From positions 13,781,854 to 13,845,853 of the forward strand of contig JAUPFP010000001.1 of assembly GCA_036925085.1 (NCBI GenBank): DNA of 64,000 bases. Direction: 5' to 3'. The notes below the pieces were generated by a model. That model was given only the letters and a program-made list of their open reading frames with translations. It searched no databases and was not told the DNA's origin. Positions within the stretch are counted from its first letter, which is position 1, and each line of letters opens with the position of its first letter. This document shows positions 3,052 to 63,563 of the stretch, in pieces. The DNA comes from Brachycybe producta (lineage: Eukaryota; Arthropoda; Diplopoda; Playtdesmida; Andrognathidae). Made by a program: the position numbers and the translations under genes.

Positions 3052-38573
<35,522 letters not shown>

Positions 38574-43101: not shown

Positions 43102-43356
43102 TTTGGTGGAGGTGCAGGGTATGCCTCCATTTGCCTTCTCCGACCTTTCTACAGAAGCCGTCCTTTGTCTAAAGTCTCGTGATTGTGCCTCACAAGTCTT
43201 CATCCATCCTTTTTATGTTGAAGCCACGTGTGGAGACCGTCGATCGCGTCAAAGTCAACCACGTGGTGCCGTTGTGTTGAATAGCGAAGGAGACTTGTGG
43301 CTACACACATCACATTTCAACCGCGCGATTCCGTGTCTTGGCCAGAGAGACACATG

Positions 43357-43600
43357 AGTAGTATAGGAAAAGTCATTTCTGCATCACTTTTCTCCATAGA
43401 CTACTATGGTGACCTCATTTTGAGCATCACATTCCAGTCTCCCATACACTTACATAGTCATTTCTGTATCACTCATTTTAAGGATAACCAGTTTATAAGC
43501 TATAGAGACATATCTACATTATATTATTATGCTTCATCATAACAGAGAGAAAAACTGTGACCCAGTTTTCATAGGGAGAAAAAAGAATAGTCAACAACAA
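43357..43600 (+). repeat. Left terminal inverted repeat of Polinton
   Basis: Matches the inverted right end through 'tatagagacatatctacattatatta' with small differences. Beyond about 43,540 the similarity becomes patchy ('cccagtttt'). Confidence 0.9.
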
Positions 43601-43619
43601 GTCTTTTTTGTATTGCCTG

Positions 43620-44100
43620 TTGTTTTTAACTCATAATTTATTTCCTGCTTAAATTCTATAAAGAGAAATAACACAAAGCAAGGTTACTTGACCACTTATT
43701 TTTATACAATTTATGATTATAAAAACTTGTTTGTTTACACACTTTCTGTACTGTAGTTTTTATGTATTGAAGGTAAGTCATTTAATTCTATGAGCTGAAA
43801 TATAATATTGTATTTTTTATATTGTATTTTTTCATGCCTCATAGAAAAACAATGAGTCATTTCTACGGCATGGCAATCAATGTCAACCAGTTTTCATGCA
43901 GTGTTTCACAAAATACTTAATTATGTATTCTTTTGATGAAAGGGAAAAAAGGATAGTAAAAAACACTTTTTGTATCTCCTGTTTTTAACTAATTTATTTC
44001 CTGCTTTTTAAATAAATTCTATAAAGAAAAATAACAAAGCAAGGTTACTCGACCACTTATTTTTTATACAATTAATGACCATAAAAACTTGTTTATTTGT
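43620..44100. repeat. Direct repeats of about 125 bp in the left subterminal region
   Basis: 43,630-43,735 and 43,985-44,095 share 'tttatttcctgctt', 'attctataaagagaaataac', 'aagcaaggttact', 'gaccacttattttt' and 'ataaaaacttgttt' in the same order. No gene. Confidence 0.75.
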
Positions 44101-44336
44101 TTCAGTTTATATTATAATTGTAAGTTTTGTATGAAAATAAAATGAGGAACCTGATATGAATTTAAAATGAATGTTTAATGGCTTCTGTTTTTAGATGCAA
44201 TGATTATCAATGTGTCTTAAACTTTTCATTATTATTGAAAGAAAAACCAGCTTCTTGTTTTGAAGTTTTAATCGTATATAGTCCAAGGTTTTTTTTATTT
44301 TGTGATTAATTAGTGATTTTATATTGTATTTTGTTT

Positions 44337-44573
44337 TTAAATTAATTTCAAAAACAGCCTTGGTATGTTATCTATTACACTGTTCTGCATCAAAATCCTT
44401 CCGCCAAATAAAATAGGTGCACCTAATGCATTTTTTTGTGCTGAATCCAATGCAGGAATCAGAATGTCTCTATCACATCTAGTTTTCACAATATCCACCA
44501 CTTTGTGAAATATATATATCACATTGGCATCCAATATTGTGGTTTTTTGCTTTAGTATACATTTCTTTTGCAA
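44337..44573 (-). pseudogene. Short ORF relic, inverted relative of 46,430-46,581
   Basis: The minus-strand frame contains KTRCDRDILIPALDS and GGRILMQNSV. The plus-strand frame at 46,390-46,581 contains KTRCDSAILIAGANSG, and the nucleotide sequences align ('agatgtgatag', 'attctgatt', 'gcagaacagtgt'). They are inverted duplicates of the same coding piece, flanking the cargo gene at 44,660-46,325. The protein family is not recognised. Confidence 0.5.
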
Positions 44574-44659
44574 GAATTATATTCACTACCCTCTCTTGAG
44601 TGCTAAGTGTAGTGACCTGTTTTGTATTTTATTTTTCAAGTGAATTTTTAGAAGGCAAC

Positions 44660-46325
44660 ATGTCACGTACTTGCAAGAACAAACCGAACAGTTTTTGCTA
44701 CATTTGTGGGGACTTCACCTGGGTAGCACAGCGAAAGTCTCTCACATCGCTTGTGAGAAAAGCATACCATCTATACTTTGCCTGCAAAGTGGGAGATCAA
44801 GGTAAAAATTGGGCTCCAAAGATTTGCTGCAACACTTGTTCGAGGACTCTGACCGGCTGGTTGAATGGCACTCATAAATCGATGCCATTTGTTGTACCGA
44901 TGATCTGGCGTGAGCCACAAAATCATTTTTCGGACTGTTACTTTTGTATGACTGATATAAAAGGGTTCATCAGAAAATCCAAACATAAAATTAAGTACCC
45001 AGATATTCCTTCTGCGATGAGACCAGTTCCTTATGATGCCACCATGCCAGTGCCATTACCTTCAGAAGAATACAATTTGGAATCAGAGTCTGAAAGTTCT
45101 CCTGCTGCTAGTCTAAGCTGTGTAAGTGCAGGTGATGATGTGTCTTCAACGGGTAGTTCAAAAAGAAAACCACACCGTCTAACCCAAGCTGAATTGAACG
45201 ATCTTGTCCGGGATTTGGATCTCTCAAAGTCGAAAGCTCAACTTCTCGGATCACGGCTTCAGCAGTGAAATCTTCTAGCGAATGGTATGAGCATCTCCTT
45301 CTTCAGAAAAAGGGAGTCACAGTTTTCAAGTTTATTCACGAAAGGTGATTTAGTATACTGTAACAACCCCCAAGGCTTACTAGAAGAACTGGAACTTCCA
45401 CCTGTAAAAGAGCAATGGAGATTGTTTATTGACTCCTCAAGTCAGCTTGAAAGCAGTTCTTTTACACAATGGAAACAAGCACCCTTCAGTTCCCATGGCC
45501 CATGCAGTAGGCATGAAAGAAACTTATGCTAACATCAAAATGCTGCTTGAGAGCATTCAGCATTCCACGTACAACTGGAACATTTGTGCTGATCTCAAGG
45601 TTATAGCGATGCTGACTGGTCTTCAAGGAGGATATACAAAGTATTGTTGTTTTCTCTGTGAATGGGATAGCCGAGCTAGAGTAAGTCACTAATGCAGGAA
45701 AGATTAGGATCAAAGAACAGAGCATATCCCAAGAAAAATGAATATCGCAAATCCCCCTTTAGTGGATACCAAACAAATTCTTTACCACCACTCCACATTA
45801 AGCTGGGATTAATAAAAAAACTTTATTAAGGCCATGAGCAGAGATGGGGAAGAGTTTAATTACCTTAGGCAAACATTTCCATGGATCAGTGAAGCAAAAA
45901 TAAAAGAAGGCATCTTCGTAGGACCTCAAATCCGAGAGCTCTTTCAGGACCAAAATTTTAAATCCAAACTGAGTGGAGCTGAATAAAAAGCTTGGGAGGG
46001 GTTTGCGAACGTATACCACAACTTCCTCGGCAACAAAAAAGCAGAAAACTACGAACAGGTCGTAGAGGAGCTTCTGTCATCATACAGAGCACTCGGGTGC
46101 AATATGTCTTTAAAAATCCATTTTCTACATTCTCATTTGGATTTTTTTCCAGACAACATGGGGGATGTATCTGATGAACATGGAGAAACATTTCACCAGG
46201 ACATTGCCCAAATAGAAAAACGTTACAGCGGCAGGTGGACAGCAAACATGTTGGCAGACTACTGTTGGTTTATTCATCGGGAAACACCACCAGAGGACTA
46301 CAAAAGGAAAAGAACTACAAACTAA
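44660..46325 (+). pseudogene. Polinton cargo: widespread invertebrate protein of unknown function, broken
   Basis: The ATG at 44,660 follows a possible acceptor (TTTTTCAAG at 44,640). The N-terminal part has clustered Cys pairs (CYICG, CCNTC, CYFCM) suggesting zinc binding, then a Ser/Glu-rich linker. Later parts carry HAVGMKETYANIKMLLE, GYTKYCCFLCEWDSRAR, EGIFVGPQIRELFQD, HSHLDFFPDNMG and SDEHGETFHQDIAQIEKRY. From memory, proteins with these signatures are numerous in arthropod and cnidarian genomes without assigned function. A stop at 45,266, frame changes near 45,430 and 45,690-45,830, and a stop near 45,984 show decay. The last frame ends at 46,325. Confidence 0.6.
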
Positions 46326-46389
46326 CCTTGTAGTTGTAAACAGAACAAATGTTTGTGTATCTTATATATGCCTTTGAAGTTTGAATTAA

Positions 46390-46581
46390 TTGAAATGTAA
46401 AAATAAATATCTTGTTTTCTCTGAAACAATGTTATCCACTTTAAAGCCCAATCTCTTAAAAACGAGATGTGATAGCGCAATTCTGATTGCTGGGGCAAAT
46501 TCAGGACACAAAAATACATTAAAATCACCAAAAATTATTTACGGGAGCGAAAAAAAAATTTTGTTTGCAGAACAGTGTTAA
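46390..46581 (+). pseudogene. Short ORF relic, inverted partner of 44,337-44,573
   Basis: See the 44,337 entry: shared coding piece KTRCD-x3-ILI. It ends in FAEQC. Unknown family. Confidence 0.45.
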
Positions 46582-46675
46582 TGAATTTTTTGGGGTTATG
46601 TGAAAAACAGTTTACTATAAAGGAAACCAATTTTCACTTATTTACAACACATTCATCTTTTCTAAAAATATGGAA

Positions 46676-47194
46676 GCACCACAAATGAAGACAAAGGAAG
46701 AAAAGAAAAAAAGGTAAATATATATTTAAAAATAAACAATCATTTTTGTAATGTTTTTTTTTTCTTATTTTTTTTTTCTAGGTGAAGCAAAGATATTTAT
46801 CAACGATGGTCACCAGCTGCCTACAATCAGTCAGCTAGAGGAAGCTGCTCAAGACATGAGGCAACAGCTCGAGGACATAGAGAATTTCCTTGAAGAAAAC
46901 GAGGAATCACATAAAATGGATGTTGATGCTGGAGAAAAAGACATCAACGATACCAAATGCCCAGATGATGCAGATGAAGCCACCATTGAAAAACTTAAAA
47001 ATGACGGGATTAATCCATTAGAACTTGATGGTGACGATTGGGAGTTGGAGACATATTCGGAGGAGGAAATTACAGCAATGGAGGAGGCTGCTAAAATGGC
47101 CGAAGTGGCCAAAAAAATAGCTGAACAAGAGTGGAGGAAGGAAATTCGCCAACAGGATAAGCTGTGGATAGCTTTTCACAATGCAAAAATTTAA
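46676..47194 (+). CDS. Acidic coiled-coil protein, hypothetical (Polinton)
   Basis: The main frame, about 46,782-47,194, is Glu/Asp-rich: SQLEEAAQDMRQQLEDIE looks like a coiled coil, followed by LELDGDDWELETYSEEE and an Ala/Glu-rich helix (EEAAKMAEVAKKIAEQEW). A small upstream exon starting at ATG 46,671 (MEAPQMKTKEEKKK) with donor AG|GTAAAT and an acceptor TTTCTAG at 46,782 is suggestive. The phases as read do not join cleanly, so the start is uncertain. The product is not recognised. It lies on the same strand as the cargo gene and the polymerase. Confidence 0.45.
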
Positions 47195-48890
47195 TCTTTT
47201 TTTTATTTTGTGTAATATTTTTAATATTTTTAACTATTGTGTTTTTTATTTTAATTTTTTTAATTTTTATGTTTTGTTTTTAATTGGTGTTTTGTGAATA
47301 AAATGTTTTAAAAGTTTTTTTTTGGTTTTGGTATTCTTTGTTATTTTCCTTTTAGTTCTTTTTAAAGTTTTTAGGCTTTGGGTTTTTAATTGTTTTTTTT
47401 TCATTTTTAGTTTTTTAAAGTTTTTAAGCTTTTTTTAGTTTTGTTAATACTTTTTTATTTTACTTTTAGCTATTTTAAAGTTTTTAGGTTTTGTTTTTTA
47501 AATTGTTTTTGTTTTCATTTTTAGTTTTTTAGTTTTTCAAGTTTTGTTTTTTAATTGGTTTTTATGAATAAAATGTTTAAAAGTTTTTTAAGTTTTGTTA
47601 ATAATTTTTTATTTTACTTTCAGCTATTTTAAAGTTTTTAGGCTTTGTGTTTTTTAAATTGTTTTTTTTTTCATTTTTAGGTTTTTAGTTTTTTAAGTTT
47701 TGTTTTTTAATTGGTTTTTATGAATAAAATATTCAAAAGTTTTTTAGTTTTTTGTTTCACTGTTTAGTTTTTTTGGTTTTTAAAAGTTTTTTTAAATACT
47801 TTATAAATAGTATGTATTAAAACAGCTAACTAAAGCAATTCATAAGATTGGTTATTTTACATTTTTTTTGTTTCCATATTGATGCATTCTATAGCCTTGT
47901 TCTGTTGTCTATATTTTGTATAACCTTGTTCTATTTTCTTTATTTTGTTAGGTGTTGAAAAAGTAATTAAAACAACACCTAACAATAATTTGAGAGAGGG
48001 CAGAAGTTAGTAAAAGAGGAAATTAGAATAAAGCTAAAAAGAGAAAAAGGCAGAGCTAAAAAGAGAAACACTAAAAGAAAAGTAAAAAAAAAGAAAAAAT
48101 GAGTAAACAAAAAATGGCGGGAAACACACACACACTCATAGTAAACAGAGGCAAAAGGAGAAAGGGTGAAAAAGTAAAAGAAAAAACCCACCCACACATA
48201 AGAGAATGAAGGAAGCAAGAAGGAAGTCGGAAAAGGGGGAACACAAAAAAGAAACCCACCCACAATTGTAAAAGAGTAATAAAAAGTTTTAAAGAAAACA
48301 AGAGAGGGGGGAAATAGAAAGACAAAACCCACCCACACACACATTAGAAGGGTGAGTCCAGATGAGTGTACCAAGTTAAATAAAAACTTTTTTACAAAAT
48401 TAAATGTAATTAAAGAATGAAAAGGAAACATACTATAAAGTGTAATAGATAGATAAATGAAGTGGTTAATTAACCTGAGATAATCTGATTACCTAGTGAA
48501 GTGTAAAATAAGAGAAAAGTAAGTTAAACAATGAAAAGGTTTGAAATGTGACTCTTAAAGGAGAAAAACATATGGTTTATACTTCATATTTCCATGGTAA
48601 AAGACCACCTGTTTTACAAAATTATTACGTCACTATAGAAAGAAATAAGAAGAAGAAACCGATGGGAAAAATAGTGTAACCAGATACCTATTTACCATAC
48701 GTTCTCTTCTATATTCAAACAACAAAGTAATAAAAAGTTAAAGAAAAAGTAAAGCACACATGCCTTGATGGGTCAATCTTTTTCATCAGGATTGCTAGTT
48801 TAGAATAAAAAGATTAAAATTTTATCATAGAATTCACATATCAGCTTTTATCCTGAAATCTTCACAGCGAAGACTGACTATTGGCACTTG
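47195..48890. other. Low-complexity T-rich then A-rich stretch in Polinton
   Basis: 47,200-47,830 is T-rich with repeated 'tttttagttttttaaagtttttagg'. 48,000-48,430 is purine-rich with 'acccacccacac' repeated at about 48,187, 48,258 and 48,328. The phenylalanine-rich minus-strand frame across the second part (48,431-47,979) is explained by this composition. No gene is supported. Confidence 0.6.
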
Positions 48891-49045
48891 AACATCTTAC
48901 TTTCTACAAAAATCAGCACATCACAAATTCTTTTGCTGTGGTTGCTGTGAAAATCAACTCTTCACAATTTTTTTTTTGCTGTGGTTGCTGTTAATATCAA
49001 CACTTCACATTTTTTTTGCTGAGATTTCTGTTAAAATCAAGTGTT
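48890..49045. repeat. Tandem repeat, about 50 bp, three copies
   Basis: 'ttttgctgtggttgctgtgaaaatcaa' recurs with drift at about 48,930, 48,975 and 49,015, each followed by 'c(a/t)cttcaca'. It lies just upstream of the polymerase gene. Confidence 0.75.
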
Positions 49046-49089
49046 CATCAAAATTGATCATCTGCATCATTAAAAAACAACTCAACACA

Positions 49090-50807
49090 ATGCAGGATAA
49101 TCAAGATATCATTGGTGAGTGTATTTTACAACTTCCTTATACATTTCTACTATTTTTATTTGATGGAGAATTGTCCTTAGTGCTAGTTATAACATACACA
49201 TTTTCAAATTTCACAAAGTAGCCAATATCATTTCTTAGAAAAAATTGTCAAAACATATTGATAGACTTGACGGTAGAAACCGCAGTAACTGGCTGAAAAA
49301 CAAAAAGGAAAGCCGCACCAAAATCCCAACCTGCGAAACGTCAATCGAATGCAACCAGTGATGCAGGCCCATCTTCAGCTGTAGCGGAAGGTACGATCAA
49401 AGAATGGTTTGGACATCACTTCAGTAAATCGGAGGTGTAACGCGGAGGTGTTTTTGTTGCCAGCCACAGATACGCAAAAGCGAACAATCCCTATCTAAAT
49501 GATTACAATCCATCTAAGCCTAAATCTTATTTAGCCTATTGGGATTACAATTCTTTGTATGCTACGGCGATGTGCGAGCCCATGCCCATGAAAGATTTTT
49601 GTTGGTTAGATGAAAATGAGATCAAAACTTTTGACATTCATTCCATAAATTTAGATGACAAAGAGGGATACATATTAGAAGTGGATCTCGATTATCCCGC
49701 AGATTTACATTTTGATCATAGTGACTACCCTCTTTGTCCAGAAAGACTCGATATTCAACTCGATATGCTATCTCCTTATGCTAAAAACCTTCTAAAAAAA
49801 GTAAAAGGAAAAGAACCCAAAAACTACAAGACAAAGAAACTCGCACCAAATCTTTATCAAAAAAACATGTTATTCATGCTAGAAATTTACAATGTTACTT
49901 AAACCTGGGAATGAAATTAATCAAAATTCATCGTGTTCTTTTTTTTTACCCAAGGCAAGTGGTTAAAGCCCTATATAGAATTTAACATTGCCATGCAGAA
50001 ACTAGCAAAAGATGATTTCGAAAAAGACTTTTTCAACTTAATGAACAATGCAAATGCAGTCTTCGGGAAAACGATGGAAAATCAAAGAAAAAAAATTAAT
50101 TCCGAACTCGTTAATGAAAAAGAACGCTGTCAAAATTACTAAGTCGCGCAAATTTAGACTCATTTCACATTATCGATAAGAACCTCACTGTTTTTAAAAT
50201 GAAAAAATAGTCCATTTATTTTAACAAACCATTGTATACAGGTTTTACTGTGCTAGAAATATCGAATTTGTTCATGTATGAATTTTATTATTATGTTCTT
50301 CAGAACATAATAATAAAATTCATACAATTCAACATTCATTCAATCAAATTATCCCGGAAATAGATTTTGTTGTATACTGATACAGATAGTTTCATCATGC
50401 ATATTCAAACGAAAGATTTGTACTATGACATGCAGCGTTACCAATACCATTTGGATACGAGTGACTATCCAAAAAGTCACTTTCTGCACTCTCTTAAAAA
50501 CAAAAAAGTTATGGGAAAATTTAAAGATGAAATGAATAGTGAACCTATTTCGGAATTCGTGGCCCTAAAATCTAAAATGTATTCTGTACTGTTAAGTAGC
50601 CATAAGTATAAATGTAAAACTAAAAGTATTAAGAAACAGATTGTTAAATCTCACTTCAATCATGATATGTGCATTGAATCTTTGCATCAGTCTATTCCGA
50701 ATAGGGTGATTCAATGGCAAATCATGTCTAAAATGCATGACATTTACACTCTAGAAATGAACAAAACCTGTCTTACCGCATTCCATGATAAACATATTGA
50801 TAAATGA
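49090..50807 (+). pseudogene. Polinton DNA polymerase B (protein-primed type), deleted and frameshifted
   Basis: This enzyme would replicate the element from its termini. A first exon, ATG 49,090 to donor at 49,115, is plausible. The polymerase palm is recognisable: DYNSLYATAM (motif A, 49,543 on), EKDFFNLMNN and FGKTMENQRKK (motif B region, about 50,020-50,090), YTDTDS (motif C, 50,373-50,390), then a thumb-like part to 50,807. The N-terminal exonuclease half is missing: sequence jumps near 49,437 from a linker-like segment to GGVFVASHRYAKANNPY. Frames change near 49,880, 49,960 and 50,110, and a 48-bp palindrome sits at 50,277. It is about 500 codons against 1,000 or more normally, so it is not functional. 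Confidence 0.88.
50277..50324. repeat. Perfect 48-bp palindrome inside the polymerase gene
   Basis: Arms of 23 bp with a 2-base centre: TATGAATTTTATTATTATGTTCT, TC, then its exact reverse complement. It lies where polymerase sequence between a fingers/palm segment and motif C is expected, so it replaces or duplicates coding sequence. Confidence 0.92.
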
Positions 50808-50825
50808 AGAAATACGTATAATTTC

Positions 50826-51088
50826 TATGGAAGAATCGCCCCAAGATCGGGTCCCGCACTTCATTTTGGAATTGATGTTTTGGATGGTGTAATTGATTCC
50901 AGCTACAGGGGAGCTATTAATGTTCGGTTAATACATTTCGGAACATATGATTTTTCCATTAAAAAGGGGCTAGAATTGCGCAAATCATTTTTGAAAAAAT
51001 ATATCCCGATGTGGAATTTGCAGAGTGCGATGTTGAACTCCCGGCAAGCACCCGTGGTGAGCTTGGTTTCGGCTCTACGGGAAATTAA
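50826..51088 (+). pseudogene. dut: dUTPase remnant
   Basis: dUTPase hydrolyses dUTP to dUMP and keeps uracil out of new DNA. Four of five trimeric-dUTPase motifs are present in order: GRIAPRSG (motif 2, about 50,829), GVIDSSYRG (motif 3), RIAQIIFEK (motif 4) and [11 protein letters not shown] (motif 5, ending at the TAA at 51,086-51,088). Motif 1 (AGYDL-type) is absent, and a frame change lies in an A/G run near 50,965 between motifs 3 and 4. It follows the polymerase frame at once, so the N-terminus appears lost by deletion. It is a host or viral dUTPase gene captured by the Polinton and now broken. Confidence 0.82.
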
Positions 51089-51269
51089 GTATTTACTTGA
51101 TATAGTCCTATAAATGTTTATTCACGAATGTATCCATCCAATAATGTAACATATACCCATTTTAATATATTAACTTTATATAAATAATATAATAATATAT
51201 GTATTGAAAAGGTAAAGGGTAAATAAAAATGTAATTAAAAAGCATACAGTGGTAAATATTTTTTTTAGA
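51089..51269. other. Gap between convergent polymerase/dUTPase and capsid blocks
   Basis: AT-rich. Genes on the left read plus and those on the right read minus, so this is where two transcription units end. AATAAA-like words occur on both strands (for example 'taaataaaaatg', 51,221). No gene. Confidence 0.45.
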
Positions 51270-51696
51270 TTATAATTAATAAATGCGTGAACAATTTTAT
51301 CATTTCGTAAATAATTGTGTAGATGAAACACAGAAACGATACTTTTCATAGATACATTAGAATATCTTAAAATAGAATAGAAAATACAATATTGGCCACA
51401 TACGGCCGTTCTCGAATACACGCATTGTAAGTCCAGGAGAGACTGTTTCTCGTGATGAACTGATTTATCTCGTTCGGCATTGGCTTCATTCAGTAACTGT
51501 CAAAATATTCAGCCATTCCATTATTGAAATAAATAGCGATCCAGTGAGATCCAAGCTCCGTCCGTGCATCTAGACTAACGATATAAAGTATACGATTCAC
51601 TCTAAAAGGAAGTTGGTCCCGTGTGAATACACCGGCAAACACGAAATGCGTGGCTGGATGATGAAATAATAAATATTCCAGTTGACTAGAATCCAT
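51270..51696 (-). pseudogene. Adenain-like cysteine protease, broken
   Basis: It would cleave capsid precursors. The minus-strand ATG at 51,696 opens MDSSQLEYLLFHHP. SHWIAIYF carries the catalytic His and GMAEYFDSY the acidic residue. A stop at about 51,490 follows, then after a frame change near 51,420 comes AVCGQYCIF with the nucleophile Cys and a C-terminal helix (LRNDKIVHAFINY). The order His-Asp-Cys fits the C5/adenain family found in Polintons and adenoviruses. The gene starts one base from the end of the major capsid gene, which indicates one transcription block. Confidence 0.8.
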
Positions 51697-51697
51697 T

Positions 51698-53011
51698 CTA
51701 ATAATCTATGATAAAATTGCGATGATGATCCACTTCGATGATGGACTGGTAGATAGAATAAACAATGACATTCACCGTTGTGTTCAATGGATTTTTAAAT
51801 TTCATATTGAGACGTAAAGATCCATTTTTACTCAAGTTGAAATGGGATCCTGATAGAGAACTTTGATCATTGGTGAGATCGAAGGCATAAAGAGAATAGC
51901 CATTTTTAAATTCCTTGAACGTCACATCTACACCGTCTGTGCCATAATACTTGCGACACGAAGAAAATAGCTGCTGACAAAGATGACCGTATTCTTTTGA
52001 ACTGAAATTTGGACTGAACTGTATCCCCGGAAACTGGGTACCATCCACCTGTAGCTCGAGAAAACTAAGATCCTTGTAATGAAAATGAAAAGGATTCTTT
52101 TTTAAATTTCCAGCTCGTGCATCACTATCTACGCGTCCAATCATAACGAAACTCGGTAATATGCCATTACAAATGTTGATGTTAATATCATAGCCACCAC
52201 TGGGTTTGCTGAAAGAAGTGCATTTGATTTGATTGATGGGATAAATAAAATTAGTTTTCAATGACTGCTCAATATGCGTTTTAACGATAGATGCATTTGT
52301 TACCACTTTTCGTACATAGAGGGTAGCAGATCTAATATCCACTTTGTAATCATTTTTGTCACTATCTGGTTTCAGTAAACAAAAAGCATCTTTTTGACGA
52401 ATTAATTTTATGGAGAGATCGAGCATATTAGGTAAGAGCCGCCCCTGATGAAAAATATCTCCGCACATATCCATAATAGCACTCGCTTTTGATCTTTCGA
52501 AGCGTTGGGCTAATCCATCTGCTGGATCGGCGGTGGATGGTTTACGATCTTTAAACGCAGAGATGGTATCTTTGTAGAACATCTTGAGAGAAAAATAAGG
52601 TTTATTCCCGGTGTTTTCGCTGCATAGAAGGGTCGTTAAATAAGCTTTATATCCATAATCGTGATCGGTGGAACTAATAATCGTATGCCCGAGAGTAACC
52701 GTAATTTCACTAAAAAGTGAGTGAAAAAAACCATTTATAGGTGTGACTTTGCAAGTAGTGTCCAATGATTTTCCGTCTGCTTTTAAAATTCTTGCCTTCA
52801 CATTCAGGTAAATATCAGAAGAATCTATGTATTCATCAGCATTTCCCATGATATTGAACTCTATCGTATATTGGTTTTCGATACTGTTCACGGGATGGTA
52901 TTCCATAATGCAGTCATCCCGATTACTCATTTGTGTCGTGGGCACGGTAAAAATATCCAACTCACAACTCATTCCAGGCCCCGAGTCATGATGTAAGAGA
53001 AAGCCACTCAT
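51698..53011 (-). CDS. Polinton major capsid protein (double jelly-roll), intact ORF
   Basis: An uninterrupted 437-codon frame, the longest true ORF of the element. Relatives are often annotated as F54H12.2-like proteins in invertebrates and correspond to the Polinton major capsid protein, which is predicted to form trimers with two jelly-roll domains for an icosahedral shell. Landmarks: an N-terminal MSGFLLHHDSG, EYHPVNSIENQYTIEFNI early in jelly roll 1, GFFHSLFSEITVTLG, and near the C-terminus GYSLYAFDLTNDQS and SLRLNMKFKNPLNTTVNVIV. The last two are typical of the family's end. Neighbours are core-like and minor capsid genes upstream and the protease just downstream. Its openness, among broken neighbours, is notable. 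Confidence 0.9.
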   Translation of the reverse strand: MSGFLLHHDSGPGMSCELDIFTVPTTQMSNRDDCIMEYHPVNSIENQYTIEFNIMGNADEYIDSSDIYLNVKARILKADGKSLDTTCKVTPINGFFHSLFSEITVTLGHTIISSTDHDYGYKAYLTTLLCSENTGNKPYFSLKMFYKDTISAFKDRKPSTADPADGLAQRFERSKASAIMDMCGDIFHQGRLLPNMLDLSIKLIRQKDAFCLLKPDSDKNDYKVDIRSATLYVRKVVTNASIVKTHIEQSLKTNFIYPINQIKCTSFSKPSGGYDININICNGILPSFVMIGRVDSDARAGNLKKNPFHFHYKDLSFLELQVDGTQFPGIQFSPNFSSKEYGHLCQQLFSSCRKYYGTDGVDVTFKEFKNGYSLYAFDLTNDQSSLSGSHFNLSKNGSLRLNMKFKNPLNTTVNVIVYSIYQSIIEVDHHRNFIIDY

Positions 53012-53013
53012 GT

Positions 53014-53505
53014 TTATAGGAGATTCACGAAATTACCAGTTTTTCTTTTCTTTTGGCCAGAAGCTTTCTTTGCTCCGGTTTTCCTTTTCTTAGCGACTTT
53101 CTTCTTCGATGCTTTCCTTTTCACTGTACGCTTCGTACTGGCCACGACTCTTCTATTTGAAGATGTTTTAGTTGTTTTTTGGTGCTTAGCTCCGCCTGTC
53201 ATAGTCTTCAAAAATTCATGCCCAGCTTCCGTTCCACGTCTTTTTAAGGCACTTTTGAAAGATTCCCCCGCTTCAATATCGGATACAACGTTAGTTCCAG
53301 ACTTTAACAACTGCTTACTCGCTGAGAGGGCTCCTTTTTTCAAAAAAGGAATCACAAAATGTTATAACGAAGAAAAAAATCCGTATCCCCGCTGATATTG
53401 AGATCCTGCGAAGACGGGCAAAGAGGATCCAATTTGTTTGTGATAATTATAACATGGATCAGTCGCTGATCTGCAATGGTAAAGCACCCTCAATTGTGAA
53501 AAATG
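53014..53505 (-). pseudogene. Basic core-like Polinton protein with an early stop
   Basis: The open part (53,355-53,014, 113 codons) has FLKKGALSASKQLLKSG, DIEAGESFKSALKRRGTEAG and a long Lys/Arg/Ser-rich tail (KRTVKRKASKKKVAKKRKTG). This resembles DNA-condensing core proteins of adenovirus and Polinton type. Upstream the same frame continues through a TAA at about 53,365 into AGSQYQRGYGF, which is typical of the N-terminus of this family, so the gene is cut near codon 50. Role inferred: genome packing within the capsid. Confidence 0.7.
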
Positions 53506-53536
53506 GAACACATACGAAAATGAACTGTGGCTATCA

Positions 53537-54794
53537 CTACGTCTCCTCTGGTAAATAAAATTTTACGTATTTTACGTATTTACGTATTTTATGTATACCA
53601 TCACGTGATACTCTTTTGTACTGCAGTTGATTGTAGATTTTGGTAACTATCATTCCATCAGAATCTTGAAGATGAACGGGCCTCAATAAAGGGGAAAGCA
53701 TCTCCCCCACAGGCTGGTACTCGATACAGTCGATATACACGAATAAAGAATGAATATAACACTGAATATCCAAAAGAAAGTCGGCCACCCTAATAATGGG
53801 AAGTTCCGACGTATTGCTAAGATAGTCCTCTTGAAACCCGAGCATTCTTTGTATTTTTTCGGAGAATTGAATACTTGAATTGGGCTGAAAGATAACTTCT
53901 ACACGTGACGTTGTATTCCGATATTTGAACCAAGGATTCTTTTCACTATTTAATCTCGGATTCACAATATTCTCTATTCGTGTTTTGCTTTCTAACAACT
54001 GCTGATGATAATCTTTCATATTTTGTAGATCTTGTTTTGACTTGCCAAATTTTCTTTTTTTTCCTCATACGGGGATTTTAAAATATTGTAATTAAATTCA
54101 TTCGCTTCTTTTTGTAACCGAACCGGATTGATAAGTTTATCTTTGGCATCGTTATCATCTGCCTTCTTTTTTTTCTTCGTCCTGTAGTTTTTGTTGTAAG
54201 GCATTAAGAAGTCGCTGAATTGTTTCGTTCCGTTTTGCATCGGGCCTGGGTAGGAGTCCTTTTTGATGTAATTCTTTTTCGAGATCGGTTATTTTGTTTT
54301 GATATTCCATTTGACTGGTATTCTTATCCTTAACGAGATTCTGATAATTGGTGCGTGATTCCTCGCACGTTTTGAACATGATATCCACATTGTCCGCGGC
54401 TGTTTGCACACTGGCTCCTTCCGTTACCATATTTTTTTCCTTTGTCTATTTTAGATGTAGATTTGTCTATTTTTTTAATCAACTCATTTTTGTTCAACTG
54501 AATCGAAGGATGTCTCAAATGAGGGGGCCCGAAATATTCATCAATATGAGAGTTGATGGCATTCACGAGAAATCCGGGAGAATGGTACGCCCCGCTAGGA
54601 ACACTAATGTTGATGCTTAGGCTCCGATCCAGATCTCTGATAATAATTTTATCTTCCTTTTCATCCGCAATATTTAACCAGGTACGCGAAAAATAAATCT
54701 CAGCCAAAGCGACTTCGTAATCTCCAAAAATTTCGATGGGTTTTGGGAGTTTCACGGTGTAATTCGTTAAAGTGTTGTCCGGATAATATTTCAT
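53537..54794 (-). pseudogene. Polinton minor capsid protein (penton-like), frameshifted
   Basis: The N-terminal frame (54,794 on) starts MKYYPDNTLTNYTVKLPKPI, typical of the minor capsid protein, and includes YEVALAEIYFSRTW and GAYHSPGFLVNAINSHI. The C-terminal frame (54,019-53,537) has IQRMLGF, LFVYIDCIEYQPVGEM and LLRPVHLQD, also typical. Between them lies a Lys/Glu-rich helical segment of about 130 codons in changing frames (54,430, 54,240 and 54,019 mark the next starts). The frame changes fall in A-rich runs. The protein is thought to form the vertex of the particle. Confidence 0.82.
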
Positions 54795-54838
54795 ACTGTC
54801 ATAGTGTCATAGTGTCACGTAAAAGTCTTGAGGCTCGG

Positions 54839-55889
54839 TCATTTTTGAAGCTGTTTCAAATCTCCCACTTTAATCCAACTGTTGTGTTTATCGGAGTATC
54901 CTTTCCACTTCACCAAAAGTTGCCGGTGGCAACCCTTTCCTTTTTCTACCCTCCAAAAATCGCTATCTTTCTTGTCAATTTTTTGAAGTTCTTCCTCGTA
55001 AAACGTACCTTCTAATAGTTCCTCATCAATATCCACGATATGGTATACCGGAGGTATTCGGTCGATATGTGCCAAGATGGTGAAAATTTCGTCTGACCAA
55101 TTAGGTAAGTAACCTTTTTCGAAAGTTAGCTTCGTCTTGGAAATACGGACATGATCTCCTACTTTGAACTTGGGCAATCTACTATTGGCAGATGGAAACA
55201 GCCGTTTAAATACATCTTTTTCATTGGTAGATGAGACTTTCTCCGGGGCCATTCCAATGCTTCTATGACACGATGCATTGTATCCTTTCACCAGATGACT
55301 CAACTTATCAATGTACCGATAATTCCCCTTCGCTGTAAAATACCTCCACATGCGTGATTTCAAAGTTCTATTAAAACGTTCAACAACGGCGGCTTTGACT
55401 TCGTTAAAAGTGGTATGAAATCCAATACCATTTTCTTTGAGAAAGGTCTGAAAGTTCTTATTCAGGAATTCTTTACCCCTATCCGATTGAATTTTTCCCG
55501 GCTTCCTTCCATCTCGCAGAATAATTTTCGAAGCAGCGATCATTTCCTTTCCAGATTTTTGTTTTAATGGTTGAACCCAAGCATATTTTGAAAATACATC
55601 GATACAAGTTAAAAGATAGTTGTAACCCTTATTCTCGTTTTTGTATGACTGCATATCCACGAGATCCATCTGCCATACATCGTCTATTTTACTGACAAAT
55701 GTTCTATTTCTCGTAAATGTTCTTCTCAGTGGCTTATGTAAGGTGTAGGCATCTTGCGTTCGTAACCAGGCTTTCAATTTCACCCCGAGTAAATTTCTTT
55801 CCAGTTGCCGCATGAAGTCGATCCACACCCCCGAAAGACCCACTGGAGGATGGATCGTAATAAATTCTTTTGAGTTCTTTGTTTTTCAT
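54839..55889 (-). pseudogene. Polinton integrase with chromodomain, one frameshift
   Basis: A retrovirus-type integrase (rve) that would insert the element. The start at 55,889 gives KRIYYDPSSSGSFGGVDRL, the usual N-terminal box. The frame changes in a G-run near 55,785, after which 54,839-55,780 is open. Catalytic residues: D in WQMDLVDM, D in KIQSDRGKEF, E in AAVVERFNRTL. The C-terminal part has an SH3-like stretch (FKVGDHVRISK) and a chromodomain (QLLVKWKGYSDKHNSWI). The ATG overlaps the stop of the preceding gene (ATGA). Confidence 0.9.
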
Positions 55890-56472
55890 GATTCTTCCCA
55901 TACGGGGCTGTCAGATTCTTTGGTATCTGGATTATAATCCCATCGCTTGTCATTAGCTATTAGAGATCGAGGTACATTCATTTTTTCAGCTCTGTGTAAA
56001 TGGCTCCCATCCTGGGGGGTCGTATCTAGTTTTACTGATAACGAGATCTCTAATAAGGTCCAGGATATTGGTATTCGGCACGACTTGACCATCTATCAGA
56101 AGCTGATGCGATGAATTCCAACTTAATGGCCTTCTACCATCTTTTATCAAATTAAGAAGACGAACGGCCTTCTTCTGTTGTGTCTTCGGCAGTTGGTTAA
56201 CTATATCGCTGATACCTGATGAATGTTTTTCTTCAATGGGACTCGAAAAACCAAGGTCCTCTAATGTCACTTTTGTTACCTCTTTGGGTCTGTTCTCATA
56301 AATGGATTTATACCGGTGTTGTAATTGTCCTAGAAGTAGAACCTTATTGTAGTTATCCAAGTTTTCTTCTTCCAATGTCTCCTAAAGTACGTTGAACGGG
56401 CGTTTTATTTTCTTGTCTTTCTCATGAAGCTTCCCAAGATTCAGCGGGGATGATGATCATTTTCTCGGCCAT
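55886..56472 (-). pseudogene. Conserved Polinton protein of unknown function, broken
   Basis: Starts at the ATG at 56,472 with MAEKMIIIPAESW. A stop and frame change follow near 56,425-56,390. The main open frame (56,375-55,986) has LLGQLQHRYKSI, LLIDGQVVPNTNILDLIRDL and PPGWEPF. A second frame (to 55,886) has NVPRSLIANDKRWDY. This series of boxes is common to many animal Polintons, but the role is not known to me. It overlaps neighbours at both ends (16 nt upstream, ATGA with integrase). Confidence 0.65.
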
Positions 56473-56818
56473 GATGTTATTAAACCAGTTAACATCGACA
56501 ATACGGGAGAAATTAACAGCGGAAGCCAACCCCCTTTTTGTTTGACGAGAAAGTTTTTCTTCGACTTTGGAAATGCTTTCGTATTCACTAATTTATTCAG
56601 TATATGCCTATAGGGTTGTAACTTTCTTTTTTCATGTTCACTCAGTACAATGTTATAGAGTCCCCAATATTATACGCACAATCACACAAACACTGAATAA
56701 AATCCAAGTTGGAGTTCTTTAGAAGTTCTTTTTGAATTTGTGGATTACTTTCCACAGCTACGTGTAATCTGTGAATGTTATGATCGAGACGTGAAGGAAT
56801 TTTTTGACTTACTTTCAT
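56457..56818 (-). pseudogene. Small Polinton protein with hydrophobic C-terminus, frameshifted
   Basis: The ATG at 56,818 overlaps the ATPase stop (ATGA). The first frame has MKVSQKIPSRLDHNIHRLHV and FIQCLCDCAYNI. After a frame change near 56,655 it continues EHEKRKLQPYRHILNKLV and ends KQKGGWLPLLISPVLSMLTG. The basic region followed by GGWLPLL and a membrane-active hydrophobic tail is a recurring Polinton pattern. A role in particle entry or assembly is only inference. Confidence 0.6.
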
Positions 56819-57563
56819 CGTTGTTTAGGTAAAAATACAGCGGTATACTCTTCCGGAAATATATTCGTTCTGAGCCGAGAGTTGTCATCCGCATTCTGCG
56901 TGAGATCAATCATCAAGTAACTGTACGGATCACGAGTACTCTAGTTAAAGGCATCGATCATGAACTTGGTGTTACCAGGATACATCTGATGAGACAAATG
57001 AGCAATTTGAGATTTGTCTCGAGGGTTTTTAAAAAGAACCAGATAAGAAGCGTTCAAAGAAATGGTGTGCTGATACGGGTTCTTGTCAAACATATTTTGA
57101 GTAATAAATATAACACATTTCGATGATGCGAATTGCACGTAAAGAGCTGAGAAACACCCCTATCCACATCTTGAAACAGATCGTCGATCACAATAAGCTG
57201 GTTTCTATCGCATCTAAACGTCTTCATGTCGGGCAATCCTTTTAGAAATATTGCTCAAGTCCCATAAAGTGAATACCAGTCTTGATATTCAGAATAGTAC
57301 CATGTTACTCTTTCCGGTGGGGGCTTAATCATTCCCCTGGCATGATCCAAAATTTTCTTAACGAAGGTTGTTTTCATCCTAAATGGTGCCATCAACGGAA
57401 TGAAGGAACCCTCTTTTTCCATGATCGTTACAGAATCTTGCGCTAGTTGTATATTGGCAGGTACTTCCGTTTTAGTGGAAAACATGAATAGACATATTGC
57501 ATCATGGGTAGCCCCGTTAACACTTGTCACTTTCTTAAACCTAATGTTAATCTTTTGGAGCAT
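56815..57563 (-). pseudogene. Polinton packaging ATPase, degenerate P-loop and several breaks
   Basis: An A32/FtsK-like ATPase would pump DNA into the capsid. The minus-strand ATG at 57,563 is the first true ATG. The P-loop region reads MAPFRMKTTFVKKIL: the Lys-Thr is kept but the glycines of GxxxxGKT are lost. WYYSEYQDWY and NQLIVIDDLF (Walker B) follow, then TQNMFDKNPYQHTISLNASY and LVLFKNPRDK, both characteristic. There are stops at about 57,252 and 56,940 and a frame change near 57,135. The combined damage makes function very unlikely. Confidence 0.82.
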
Positions 57564-57839
57564 GATAATTCCCAAACCTATACTCAAACCTTAGCTAGAC
57601 ATGATCGAATTTATTTAAACTTGTCAATAGAAGAAATATTTCTAGACAATTAAATCGAATGTGTAACTATGTCTTATAATTTATATATTACATGTGTAGA
57701 CATTGCATCTGATTCTAAACTATATCTAATGCCTCTACTAGAAGTACTGCAGTTAATAGGCATCCGACTGTCTATCTCGATGACTCCAGCAAGTAATTAG
57801 ATTAGTCGTAAAATTTTTTTTAAAAAATAAAATTGCAAC
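57564..57839. other. Intergenic stretch between divergent ATPase and RING genes
   Basis: AT-rich. A divergent promoter region is expected here, but no defined motif was found. Confidence 0.4.
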
Positions 57840-58152
57840 TACAGATGACACGACTGATACTGAATTTCTCCTCCAGCTGATGGGAAATCCACCTGTAAGC
57901 CGCAAACAAGAACTTTTGGAGAAACTACTGCCCTACGATGATGAAGAAACGGCGACCATAAAATATTGTACTATTTGTTTAGTGAACGGTGCACGGGTTG
58001 TATTTGAACCTTGTAAACATCAAGCTGTCTGTAAGGCTTGTACAACAACATTATTAGAAATGGAAAGTTTTTTATGCCCAGTGTGTAGAAACCCCAATTC
58101 AAATGTAATTGATGTTTACCAGCCCTTAACAGATTTATTGCCAATTCAATGA
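57840..58152 (+). CDS. RING-finger protein, IAP/MDM2-like type (Polinton accessory gene)
   Basis: The frame from ATG 57,880 gives 90 residues with a C3HC4 RING at residues 30-69: C30-x2-C33-x11-C45-x-H47-x3-C51-x2-C54-x11-C66-x2-C69 (CTIC, CKHQAVCKAC, CPVC). Such C-terminal RINGs recruit E2 ubiquitin-conjugating enzymes; IAP and MDM2 families have the same Cys/His spacing and also place the RING last. A likely acceptor (CAACTACAG, ending 57,845) and open frame upstream (TDTEFLLQLMGNPP) suggest an earlier exon. No stop or frameshift is seen. It faces the Bcl-2-like gene, 188 bp apart. E3 ligase activity is inferred. Confidence 0.75.
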
Positions 58153-58339
58153 ATATCATCTAAAATAAAACCTGAAGTTCTTTTATATATTGACCACTTC
58201 TGCAAGAGACGTTCGCCTGCCTTGGGATACCAAGTTTGCTATCCCTACGCAGGCAGAGGTCTGTGAAATGCCGAAGTGTCATGAGTTTATATAAAGAAAT
58301 GAAACAATACTGCAAAAACTTTGAACATGTAACATTTTA
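58153..58339. other. Spacer between convergent RING and Bcl-2-like genes
   Basis: A small hairpin, 'cgcctgcc...' at about 58,209 paired with '...gcaggca' at about 58,250, lies in the middle and could end transcription. The word 'aataaaacc' (58,163) is a likely polyadenylation signal for the RING gene. Confidence 0.45.
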
Positions 58340-58831
58340 TTACATCCGCATAAATAAATATAACAAAGTGCTAATCATTAGTAATTGTGGAACCACATGA
58401 ATAACGTTACTCGGAGTGTCGTTAGATGTTGCGTAGACATCCTGCATCACAGCCCATGATCCATTATCTCGAAGCCACGATGCCGATGACTTGAACACGT
58501 ATTCACCGATATGCACTGCCGTTGCTTCCTCGAATCCAGATCTTGCCAGTTGGAGGACGAATGCTTAAGTCACTATAATTTTACCGAATGAAGGTGATCC
58601 TTGATAAACTTCGTCCAACCAGAAGGTTAATTCTTGGTTCAAATGTGAGGCAGTTTTTAAAGTTGTTGCTATGGATTCAAAAGCTTGAATATCCTTATTT
58701 CGAGCTTGTTCGGCGAGTTTGAAAATTGTTCGTGAAAAGTTGGAATTCACGGCTTCGTTCGATTGTTTGGCCATATGATACACATCAACGACAATTTTAG
58801 TAGAATCCTGCATGTTGAACACCTTATTCAT
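58340..58831 (-). pseudogene. Bcl-2-like protein (Polinton accessory gene) with one internal stop
   Basis: The minus-strand frame from ATG 58,831 runs 164 codons to TAA at 58,340, followed by AATAAA, with a single in-frame TAA at codon 89 (58,567-58,565). Features in order: a BH4-like amphipathic start (STKIVVDVYHMAKQ, residues 10-23), helical segments, a BH1-like region (LDEVYQGSPSFGKIIVT, compare the NWGR box) interrupted by the stop, a BH2-like box (WLRDNGSWAVM, compare WI-x-x-NGGW), and a C-terminal hydrophobic anchor (VPQLLMISTLLYLFM). A BH3 match is weak. Size and layout fit multidomain Bcl-2 proteins of viral type (about 150-190 residues). A possible upstream exon ends at a donor near 58,898. 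The product would act at mitochondrial membranes against cell death; function is inferred. Confidence 0.6.
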
Positions 58832-58964
58832 AAAAGCTAAGCACAACTAACATTAAAAAGTATAAATATATTCATAGTTTGAAATAAAATTTCTTACCTT
58901 CTATATACAAAACAACAAAGTCGTGAAAACAAGTTTTTTTATTATCTCAGCAGGTGGTATGAGA

Positions 58965-59213
58965 AAGTTTAAAACTTTCTCTTTAATGAGAAGCAAAAAA
59001 AACTGGGACAAAGTTTTTTTTTCTGATGAAGCATTAAAAAATAATATAATGTAGATATGTCTCTATAGCTTATAAACTGGTTGGCCTTAAAATGAGTGAT
59101 ACAGAAATGAGTCTCTGTAAGTCTATGGGAGATTGGAATGTGGTGCTCAAAATGAGGTCACCATAGTAATCTATAGAGAAAAGTGATGCAGAAATGACTT
59201 TTCCTATACTACT
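58965..59213 (-). repeat. Right terminal inverted repeat of Polinton
   Basis: Inverted counterpart of 43,357-43,600, ending CCTATACTACT followed by the duplicated CACATG. The inner part also holds a local hairpin 'gagaaagtttaaaactttctc' at about 58,969-58,990. Confidence 0.9.
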
Positions 59214-59219
59214 CACATG

Positions 59220-61044: not shown

Positions 61045-62748
61045 CATGGCCACCTCGAACGAATCTTCGGATCTCCTGCCTGATCACCGTGGCTCTCACG
61101 AAAATTCGCAAGATAATCCCATCGTTGTCAATGATGCGACACCACCGCCGCAGCCAACTGAGCCTAGCAATCTGGAGCTATCGCAACAGGTGACCACACT
61201 CACCGAACACATGGATCGGCTCATAGACAATCGGATCACACCAAACCGAACAACACCGTGGCGGACAACACTCACACGTCGTGATGATGATTCTGACCTG
61301 TCAGCAACCTCCTATTATGGCTATAGAAAGCCATATGTTCCACATCATGATCGTCACAACCACCACCATACACCACGTCACCTACCACGCCACCCTGACT
61401 GGCAGTACACCCCACAATGGCTTCGAGGCCAGTCAGACTTTCAGCAAGGTAGAGACAAGCGCACCGAGCAACCACACGCACTACTGACAATGACCCGTGC
61501 TGATTATCCACGTACCGCACATCAGTAGAGTCGGGCTCCAAACTCAGGCCCGACTCGAGACCCTTCAGTTAATGCACCACGTGTCACACCGCACATGGCA
61601 GCACTGATGATGACTGGGATGTCAAATGTACAAGACAACATCTATCGCCCAGCCCACAGAGACCTCGACCGACGATTTCAACAAGAAATAGCGGCCGCCA
61701 CCCAGCCAATGCCATCCAAAAATTCGATGGATTAACAGGTTTCCGCCCCTTCCTGGAAGAATTCGAGGAAGTGGCCCACCTGTATGACTAGACTGATCGC
61801 CACAAGGAAGAGTATCTCACTGGATGCCTCACCATAGCTGCCCGCACGTGGTCGAGCCAGCTGAAGTATGAATGTCGTGGCATTTCGTGGCCCGAGCTGA
61901 GAGTACAAATGATGGACATGTTCGGTAGGCCGAATGAATTACCCATCCTGGAGAAGCAGTATATAGATGCTTCAAGCAGAAGGCGAGGGCACCCAGGCCT
62001 TCATCTGGAAATGTATGGCCCTCGGCGACCGAGTTTACCCATACATGGACGATCAACTGCGTATAAATCAGTTGCGTCGTGCGCTACACCCGATCCTTCT
62101 ATACGCTGTCCACCATGCACCCACTACATCATTTAAGGACTTCGCCAATGCCATCCTCAACATAGAGGTAGTCCTATCGTCCTTAAACAAATGGCCGTTG
62201 GAACCGAAGGCTGAATCTGACGCACAAACGGACAAGGAAGCATCGAAGACCGATAAAGAGCTGGCGTTAACCGCCGGCTCTAAAGAAAACACATCGTTCT
62301 AGGCACGATAAAAAGCCGAACCAAACTGCAACGACTAATCCGGGGCGACACTCCACAACGGACACCAAACAAGACACCACTCGCACATTCGACAAGAGCA
62401 AGTCGACGTGCTATAATTGTGGGAAGTTGGGACATTTCCTCCGTAAGTGTCGCCAACCCAAGAAGGTCACCATCAAGCAGTTAGGAGAACCGATAACCGA
62501 TTATGACACCGAGGAGGAGGTGCCTGAAATGGACCTAATCACCGAAAACGGAGCTGAGTTCGCATTAATCCGACTAAGGGGACAAATCCATTGGATCCCT
62601 CTTCCAGCTCCAGTTTCAACCGGAAAGGCACCACCGCCCGAAAAACCCGACACCGTCAGTTCCGACAATCCTGAAAATGTACTTATTCACATAATCAATC
62701 GGGCACCCATACGTGCATGGACCTCAGATGAATTCATTACGTGGCAGG
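61045..62748 (+). pseudogene. gag: Family A copy 2 gag, disrupted
   Basis: The ATG at 61,045 opens a 160-codon frame (SDLLPDHRGSHENS, LSQQVTTLTEHMDRLI, a His-rich stretch) ending at 61,526 in an early stop. The capsid part follows in other frames (LEKQYIDASS, TQAFIWKCMALGDRVYPYMD, LRINQLRRALHP at 61,967-62,299). The zinc knuckle CYNCGKLGHFLRKC lies at about 62,411-62,452, then an acidic linker up to the LTR insertion at 62,749. It has more breaks than copy 1, so it is older or under less constraint. Confidence 0.75.
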
Positions 62749-63563
62749 TGTAACAACCCGACTGGGTGCTACAATGACCCGCGGTAAAATTTGCTTTACT
62801 TACCGCCACTGAACCTCCTTGGGACGGGACCTAAGCGCTGGCCAGCCCTCCTCTTGTACCCGTCCGTGCCCACAGGTAGCGCCGGTCGGAGGTTCCCACG
62901 CCGCAAGTCGATGGACGAGTGGCCGCCGAACAAGACGTAGAATCCATGGTAGATTTCCGATGAATCCTACCGTGGATAAACCACGCGCGAAACACCGGCC
63001 GACAGGACGAATAACATGCCGGACCAGGACGGTGAAGCACCGGTGAAACCCCACCGGTAAACCCCCACCCTCCTCGCGGTAACTTCCCCAGTATTTATAA
63101 TAATAACAAACAAGGACACAGTGGTGAGTGAAATAATAAATAAAGATTTATTAAAAAAGAATAATAAAACACTCACTATAAGATGGCTGCAATATCTGCT
63201 CGTTAAATAACCAGCAGAGAGCAGAACAAAAGACAATGATGTATCTCCTGGCTACTCCAGCCAGGAGGAGAGGTTATTAACCTCCATCCACAAAGAAAAC
63301 AAGTGATGAATGGTGGCCATCTTGGCCACCTGATGACTGAAGAGCAACACAAGACACATGCACACAGCATCAAGGGTTTCACTACTGTCCAGATAATAAT
63401 GGCCGCCGCCATTATATATCATCCCCAGGCTGCTCCACCTGGGGAGGACAGTGACCCTTGCTGGCCATTTTGTCGTCTGCCTGGCAACCAATTTACAGGT
63501 GCCTAGCAGGCGACAATGGGAATTTAGTTTTACTCCACAAAGGAGCAAAACTGGGTCGTCACA
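62749..63563 (-). mobile_element. Solo LTR, family B, reversed, with 4-bp duplication CAGG
   Basis: Plus-strand ends are TGTAACAACCCGACTGGG and GGGTCGTCACA (815 bp). CAGG precedes (62,745-62,748) and follows (63,564-63,567) it, and the family A sequence reads straight across ('tggcagg|acaccctc', compare 'tggcaggacacgctt' in copy 1). Inside are the complement of the 'ctggggaagttaccgcgaggaggg' block and AATAAA on the minus strand. It is the cleanest copy for defining the family B LTR. Confidence 0.92.

What the first reader, a model, noticed from the sequence alone, without database searches (positions are those of the whole stretch)
58340..58831. A Bcl-2-like death-control gene inside a Polinton
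Seen: a 164-codon minus-strand frame with a BH1-like region (SFGKIIVT after an acidic helix), a BH2-like WLRDNGSWAVM, a C-terminal hydrophobic anchor and an AATAAA just after the stop. One in-frame TAA lies in the BH1 region. Known: Bcl-2 proteins keep these in that order, and several large DNA viruses carry such genes. Inference: the element captured or co-evolved an anti-apoptotic gene as a virus would, which supports a past infectious phase. I recall proposals of anti-apoptotic accessory genes in adintovirus/Maverick-type elements but cannot verify them here.
Basis: partly seen in the sequence, partly recalled or inferred. Interest (0 to 1): 0.88.

Follow-up and report, generated by a model that had tools for sequence, protein, structure and literature searches.

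The report
Broken Bcl-2-like gene in a Polinton
A virus-like mobile element (a Polinton) in what is probably an animal genome carries the decayed remains of what looks like a cell-death-blocking gene of the Bcl-2 type, a kind of passenger gene already suspected in this group of elements.

Summary
The frame is real: 58340-58831, minus strand, 162 sense codons with one in-frame TAA at 58565-58567. It lies 382 bp inside the right end of a 15,857-bp Polinton (43357-59213) with AGTAGT...ACTACT ends, terminal inverted repeats and a CACATG target duplication. Searched as two separate pieces, the half after the stop matches the Bcl-2 family around BH2: rank 1 of 773 window frames with two profiles, 0 of 300 shuffles as good. 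The half before the stop is weak: no Pfam Bcl-2 hit (none for the second half either), and 35 of 300 shuffles score as well, though its best alignment falls on BH1 in the right order. I conclude: probably a dead Bcl-2-family gene in the right accessory region, beside an open RING-finger frame. Anti-apoptotic action is inference. No homologue turned up in the searches that ran; the host-genome search did not complete. A preprint states that most mammal-associated adintoviruses appear to encode anti-apoptotic homologues and/or candidate oncogenes, so this is a new member of a known kind.

The parts
43357..59213 (.). Polinton/Maverick element, 15,857 bp, decayed
   Evidence: AGTAGT...ACTACT termini and CACATG on both sides; TIR alignment
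43351..43356 (.). left copy of 6-bp target site duplication CACATG
59214..59219 (.). right copy of 6-bp target site duplication CACATG
43357..43569 (.). left terminal inverted repeat (about 213 nt)
58999..59213 (.). right terminal inverted repeat (about 215 nt)
58568..58831 (-). piece 1 of the Bcl-2-like frame (88 aa): N-terminal half ending in a BH1-like stretch
   Evidence: best hhalign alignment is on BH1, residues 68-86, not significant by score
58568..58618 (-). BH1-like stretch
58565..58567 (-). in-frame TAA that breaks the frame
58340..58564 (-). piece 2 of the Bcl-2-like frame (74 aa plus stop): BH2-like stretch and hydrophobic tail
   Evidence: hhalign E 4.1e-5; 0 of 300 shuffles; rank 1 of 773 frames
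58445..58477 (-). BH2-like stretch
58349..58405 (-). C-terminal hydrophobic tail, possible membrane anchor
58336..58341 (-). AATAAA, possible poly(A) signal, overlapping the final stop
   Evidence: read
57784..58152 (+). RING-finger frame (122 aa stop to stop), convergent neighbour
   Evidence: PF13920 E 2.6e-11; best solved matches are CBL, MGRN1 and IAP RINGs
54839..55885 (-). integrase
   Evidence: PF00665 rve E 1.3e-14, chromo domain E 1.6e-5
51698..53032 (-). major capsid protein, uninterrupted 444-aa frame
   Evidence: 74 relatives, best 50% identity over 98%
49441..51113 (+). PolB remnant in several frames (by eye beyond the first), ending in a dUTPase-like frame
   Evidence: PF03175 E 8.8e-5, below the curated score, on 49441-49899; PF00692 E 5e-9 at 50808-51110

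Best explanation
The frame is the decayed remnant of a short intronless Bcl-2-family gene that belonged to the Polinton, in the accessory region next to its right terminal repeat. In its working state the protein most likely was a compact helical Bcl-2 fold anchored by its tail in a mitochondrial or ER membrane; it would have held pro-apoptotic BH3 proteins or Bax/Bak-type effectors in its groove and so kept an infected or transposing cell alive. Shown: the Polinton, the frame, the stop, Bcl-2 similarity of the second half, a hydrophobic tail. Inferred: that both halves are one gene, the fold, the membrane target, residence in the element, and the pro-survival direction. This copy is broken and probably makes no full protein.
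For: Piece 2 against a 7-member Bcl-2 profile: hhalign score 32, E 4.1e-5, probability 70%; best of 300 shuffles 21.6; best of 494 window frames, next 20.9; hmmsearch 17.0 bits, E 1.4e-4, rank 1 of 773 frames, next 4.5. With a profile made only of database proteins: 15.3 bits, E 5.4e-4, rank 1 of 773, next 3.2. PDB phmmer of piece 2: 33 of 42 matches are Bcl-2-family chains (many near-identical), among them the first 25, but best E is only 0.075. NCBIfam: only hit at E <= 1 is TIGR00865 bcl-2, E 0.1, far under its cut-off. Piece 1: best hhalign alignment is BH1 at its end; 3rd of 773 frames; score and diagonal together reached in 11 of 1200 shuffles. Order BH1, BH2, tail is right. Single-sequence models of both pieces are all helical.
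Against: No PF00452 hit for either piece. Piece 1 is not significant by score: 35 of 300 and 146 of 1200 shuffles reach it; rank 44 of 494; with the database profile 8th of 773 and without a sensible alignment, hhalign placing it elsewhere; neither of its two PDB matches is Bcl-2; its best library hits are an ISL3 transposase model (Pfam E 0.0021, under cut-off) and an ISL3-type alpha-bundle tail (NCBIfam E 0.045). BH1 reads SFGK, not NWGR. Foldseek of the piece-1 model: none of 83 PDB matches at E <= 0.001, no Bcl-2 in the 50 shown, with pLDDT 64.8 and the other four models under 50. No relative in viral contigs, in the protein search (piece 1 only) or elsewhere in the window (best tblastn E 2.8). 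One copy only.
Confidence: 0.72

Rival explanations
1. A piece of a host Bcl-2-family gene (for example a processed copy) landed in the Polinton by chance and was never an element gene.
For: The element is decayed and sits in a repeat-rich window (by eye); only one copy is seen, so residence cannot be shown; the frame is broken.
Against: The frame runs from ATG to a stop with AATAAA, fills the space between the RING frame and the terminal repeat, and shows no poly(A) tail (read); accessory regions flanking the core are usual in vertebrate Mavericks (PMC8097293, passage).
Confidence: 0.13
2. Chance resemblance: an unrelated helical accessory protein or a random open frame with a BH2-like WLRDNGSW stretch.
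For: No Pfam hit; first half not significant; openness alone arises in 37 of 2000 shuffles; the significant part is about 40-50 residues.
Against: Piece 2 is rank 1 of 773 frames with two profiles and well ahead of the next, 0 of 300 shuffles reach it, and its only NCBIfam hit is a Bcl-2 model; BH1-like residues lie where expected.
Confidence: 0.15

Closest known systems
Adintoviruses (Polinton-like animal viruses) with anti-apoptotic homologues (preprint PMC11071296, passages)
   Same: Integrase and PolB of the Polinton kind; [quoted passage not shown]
   Different: The main text has 0 occurrences of 'bcl', so which genes are meant was not seen; here the element is an integrated, decayed copy with repeats and target duplication in an unidentified host
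Viral Bcl-2 proteins of large DNA viruses (review PMC11209288, passages)
   Same: Passages describe irido-, pox- and herpesvirus Bcl-2 proteins, one iridovirus protein with only BH1 and a tail recognisable; African swine fever virus appears in a reference title there; adenovirus is recalled
   Different: That text has 0 occurrences of 'adinto' and 'polinton'; here the gene is broken and lies in a transposon-like element
Cellular Bcl-2, Bcl-xL and kin (PF00452)
   Same: BH2 region, and order BH1, BH2, tail; BH order BH4-BH3-BH1-BH2 and prosurvival motifs normally on one exon (PMC7022251, passage)
   Different: BH1 reads SFGK instead of NWGR, BH2 has S for the second G, the stretch from BH1 to BH2 is about 7 residues shorter than in Bcl-xL (counted by hand), no PF00452 hit
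Burro giant Gypsy-like retroelements of planarians (PMC6431247, passages)
   Same: A mobile element with a BCL2-like motif and with RING and BIR (IAP) motifs
   Different: LTR retrotransposon polyprotein, not a Polinton
Vertebrate Mavericks (PMC8097293, passages)
   Same: (AGT)2...(ACT)2 ends, two modules pointing to the centre, accessory regions outside the core, size within the reported range
   Different: The main text has 0 occurrences of 'bcl' and 'ring' at word starts; the ATPase-like remnant here lies on the integrase side (by eye)

Membership tests
Bcl-2 family | BH2 motif region | tested here: met
   W, G and W kept, second G is S
Bcl-2 family | BH1 motif region (NWGR core) | tested here: inconclusive
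   best alignment falls there but is not significant by score and is not reproduced with the database profile; core reads SFGK
Bcl-2 family | BH3 and BH4 motifs | tested here: inconclusive
   hmmsearch aligns residues 30-66 of the stop-to-stop piece to profile positions 43-80 at 3.1 bits, E 2.6; BH4 likeness by eye only
Bcl-2 family | Pfam PF00452 above cut-off | tested here: not met
   neither piece hits it; the pieces were searched apart, which cuts the domain in two
Bcl-2 family | Bcl-2 fold with hydrophobic groove | tested here: inconclusive
   piece models all-helical, low confidence; no significant PDB match for piece 1, piece 2 not compared; whole domain not folded, step referred
Bcl-2 family | C-terminal hydrophobic tail (common, not obligatory) | tested here: met
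Bcl-2 family | control of cell death | not testable with these tools
   needs bench work
Polinton/Maverick | terminal inverted repeats and 6-bp target duplication | tested here: met
Polinton/Maverick | retrovirus-like integrase | tested here: met
   PF00665 E 1.3e-14
Polinton/Maverick | double jelly-roll major capsid protein | tested here: inconclusive
   74 relatives by sequence, none shown with a Pfam domain or capsid name; no Pfam hit for the frame; the capsid assignment rests on recalled Polinton features and its place in the element
Polinton/Maverick | protein-primed PolB | tested here: inconclusive
   PF03175 E 8.8e-5, 22 bits against cut-off 25.8, on one broken piece; the next piece has no PolB hit
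Polinton/Maverick | packaging ATPase and cysteine protease | tested here: inconclusive
   no Pfam hit for the one frame of each that was scanned; Walker-B-like and adenain-like stretches seen by eye

The most novel reading that the evidence does not exclude
The right end of this Polinton lineage is a two-gene host-death-control module, a Bcl-2-like protein and a RING ubiquitin ligase of IAP/CBL kind transcribed towards each other, kept because the element spreads through an infectious stage in which the host cell must be held alive.
Probability: 0.25. Interest if true: 0.65.

Novelty: new member of a known kind. Interest (0 to 1): 0.42.

Why it matters
Whether Polintons of animals are only transposons or also viruses is an open question. 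A cell-death gene is of little use to a transposon in the germ line but of much use to a virus, so a Bcl-2 gene maintained across copies would argue for an infectious stage and give a gene to test. One broken copy does not settle that.

Tried and rejected
Led nowhere: seven viral-contig scans (the two pieces of the frame; capsid protein; capsid alignment; RING; Bcl-2 profile; capsid relative P0014) gave no confirmed relative, so that collection may simply lack animal Polintons. Protein search with the first piece (stop to stop, 93 aa, so that relatives up to 162 aa were allowed) found no candidate sharing three words; piece 2 was not searched there, because full-length relatives would exceed the length limit. 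The search with the Bcl-2 profile returned 1637 proteins, of which the 120 best are listed; those with names are vertebrate or synthetic Bcl-2/Bcl-xL, so it added no invertebrate or viral members. Foldseek of the piece-1 model gave no significant match.

Papers: adintovirus with Bcl-2 or Bcl2 gave none; Polinton with Bcl-2 gave three listings, one read in passages; wider searches (listings capped) gave nothing on Bcl-2 in Polintons in the listings or in the passages I opened (PMC8097293, PMC10812802, PMC5803895, PMC8961515, PMC5753468). Starrett 2021 (PMC8502044) is not held, so its content is recalled only.

Considered and rejected by eye: an intron in place of the stop (no plausible intron seen); a processed host copy (no poly(A) tail seen; kept as a rival).

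Full report
What is there. The minus-strand frame at 58340-58831 reads 88 codons, a TAA at 58565-58567, then 74 codons and a stop. A run this long with at most one stop arises in 37 of 2000 shuffles of the right end, so openness is weak evidence by itself.

Where it is. The frame lies in an element with exact ends: AGTAGT at 43357 and ACTACT ending at 59213, flanked by CACATG on both sides, with terminal repeats of about 215 nt. These ends are the commonest type in vertebrate Mavericks (PMC8097293, passage). Inside are an integrase (PF00665, E 1.3e-14, and a chromo domain), an uninterrupted 444-residue frame that I read as the major capsid protein, with 74 relatives, best 50% identical, a PolB piece (below cut-off) and a dUTPase-like frame (PF00692, E 5e-9). 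By eye PolB, protease and ATPase are split over several frames, so the copy is decayed. Elsewhere in the window 21157-21588 encodes TPR sequence: its best PDB match is an engineered repeat protein (E 1.4e-51), then BBS4 chains (E 1e-34 and 1.7e-33). I read it as a BBS4 exon, consistent with a ciliated eukaryote, most likely an animal; the species is unknown.

Is it Bcl-2? Because the gene is broken and may be a host-defence gene of an animal virus, I searched its two pieces apart. Piece 2 (58343-58564) matched a seven-member Bcl-2 profile at E 4.1e-5, probability 70%; none of 300 shuffles reached its score of 32 (highest 21.6) and it led 494 window frames of 50-400 aa (next 20.9). hmmsearch without filters put it first of 773 frames of 40-800 aa at 17.0 bits, the next at 4.5. 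A second profile of 113 database proteins, free of typed letters, gave the same rank: 15.3 bits, the next 3.2; with it hhalign gives E 6.3e-4, probability 28%. PDB (33 of 42 matches Bcl-2 family, best E 0.075) and NCBIfam (TIGR00865 bcl-2, the only hit, E 0.1) point the same way without being significant alone. Pfam has no hit.

Piece 1 (58568-58831) is weak. Its best hhalign alignment places residues 68-86 on BH1, where they should be, but 35 of 300 shuffles score as well, it ranks 44 of 494, and with the second profile it ranks eighth of 773 with no sensible alignment, hhalign placing it elsewhere. With the first profile in hmmsearch it is third of 773 at 3.2 bits; 146 of 1200 shuffles reach its hhalign score and 11 of 1200 reach score and diagonal together. 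Pfam gives no Bcl-2 model for it; its best hit is an ISL3 transposase model at E 0.0021, below cut-off, and NCBIfam lists an ISL3-type alpha-bundle tail at E 0.045. Single-sequence AlphaFold models of the pieces are all helical with best mean pLDDT 71.7 and 64.8; piece 1 has five helices, but Foldseek found no match with E <= 0.001. So membership rests on the BH2 half.

Mechanism. If intact, a tail-anchored Bcl-2 fold would most simply act as viral Bcl-2 proteins do, binding pro-apoptotic partners and delaying cell death (review PMC11209288, passages). The neighbouring 122-residue frame on the other strand has a RING finger (PF13920, E 2.6e-11) whose best solved matches are CBL, MGRN1 and IAP RINGs (best E 2e-5); Pfam lists no BIR domain in it, so it is not a full IAP. 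Whether the two act together is speculation. This copy is broken.

Novelty. A preprint says most mammal-associated adintoviruses appear to encode anti-apoptotic homologues and/or candidate oncogenes (PMC11071296, Discussion passage); Starrett 2021 was not held. Planarian Burro retroelements carry BCL2-like motifs (PMC6431247, passages). Text searches for adintovirus with Bcl-2 or Bcl2 found no paper in the held library, which lacks most subscription journals. I file it as a new member of a known kind.

Limits. No relative of the frame was found in viral contigs, in the protein search with piece 1 or elsewhere in the window; the viral collection gave no confirmed relative of the capsid either, and the host-genome search was busy at all ten tries.

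Noticed in passing
50808-51110 (+): A dUTPase-like frame (PF00692, E 5e-9) follows the PolB remnant inside the Polinton. A search for Polinton with dUTPase listed 11 papers; the passages opened in two of them do not report one in Polintons.
   Followed up: partly
57784-58152 (+): Open RING-finger frame (PF13920, E 2.6e-11) in the right accessory region, convergent with the Bcl-2-like frame.
   Followed up: partly
44600-46325 (+): Frames with many Cys (CYICGD, CNTCSRTL, CYFC) and a later YCWFIHRETPPEDYKRK part in the left third of the Polinton; no Pfam family above cut-off for the two frames scanned. By recall it resembles a widespread invertebrate repeat protein, nested or cargo.
   Followed up: no
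57054-57590 (-): By eye a packaging-ATPase remnant (LIVIDDLF, TTFVKKIL) on the integrase side, with a Walker A loop that looks degraded; no Pfam hit for 57258-57590. In vertebrate Mavericks the ATPase lies in the PolB module.
   Followed up: no
51176-51705 (-): By eye an adenain-like protease split over two frames (GSHWIAIYFNN, CGQYC); no Pfam hit for 51179-51499.
   Followed up: no
21157-21588 (-): TPR stretch read as a BBS4 exon (BBS4 chains E 1e-34, behind an engineered TPR protein at E 1.4e-51), the clearest host gene I saw.
   Followed up: partly
22932-25161: Long tandem stretch open in several frames on both strands, with repeating HTRAHVHA-like translations; probably a minisatellite.
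   Followed up: no
9024-9338 and 62271-62753 (+): Two related retroelement gag regions with the same CYNCGKLGHFLR zinc knuckle.
   Followed up: no
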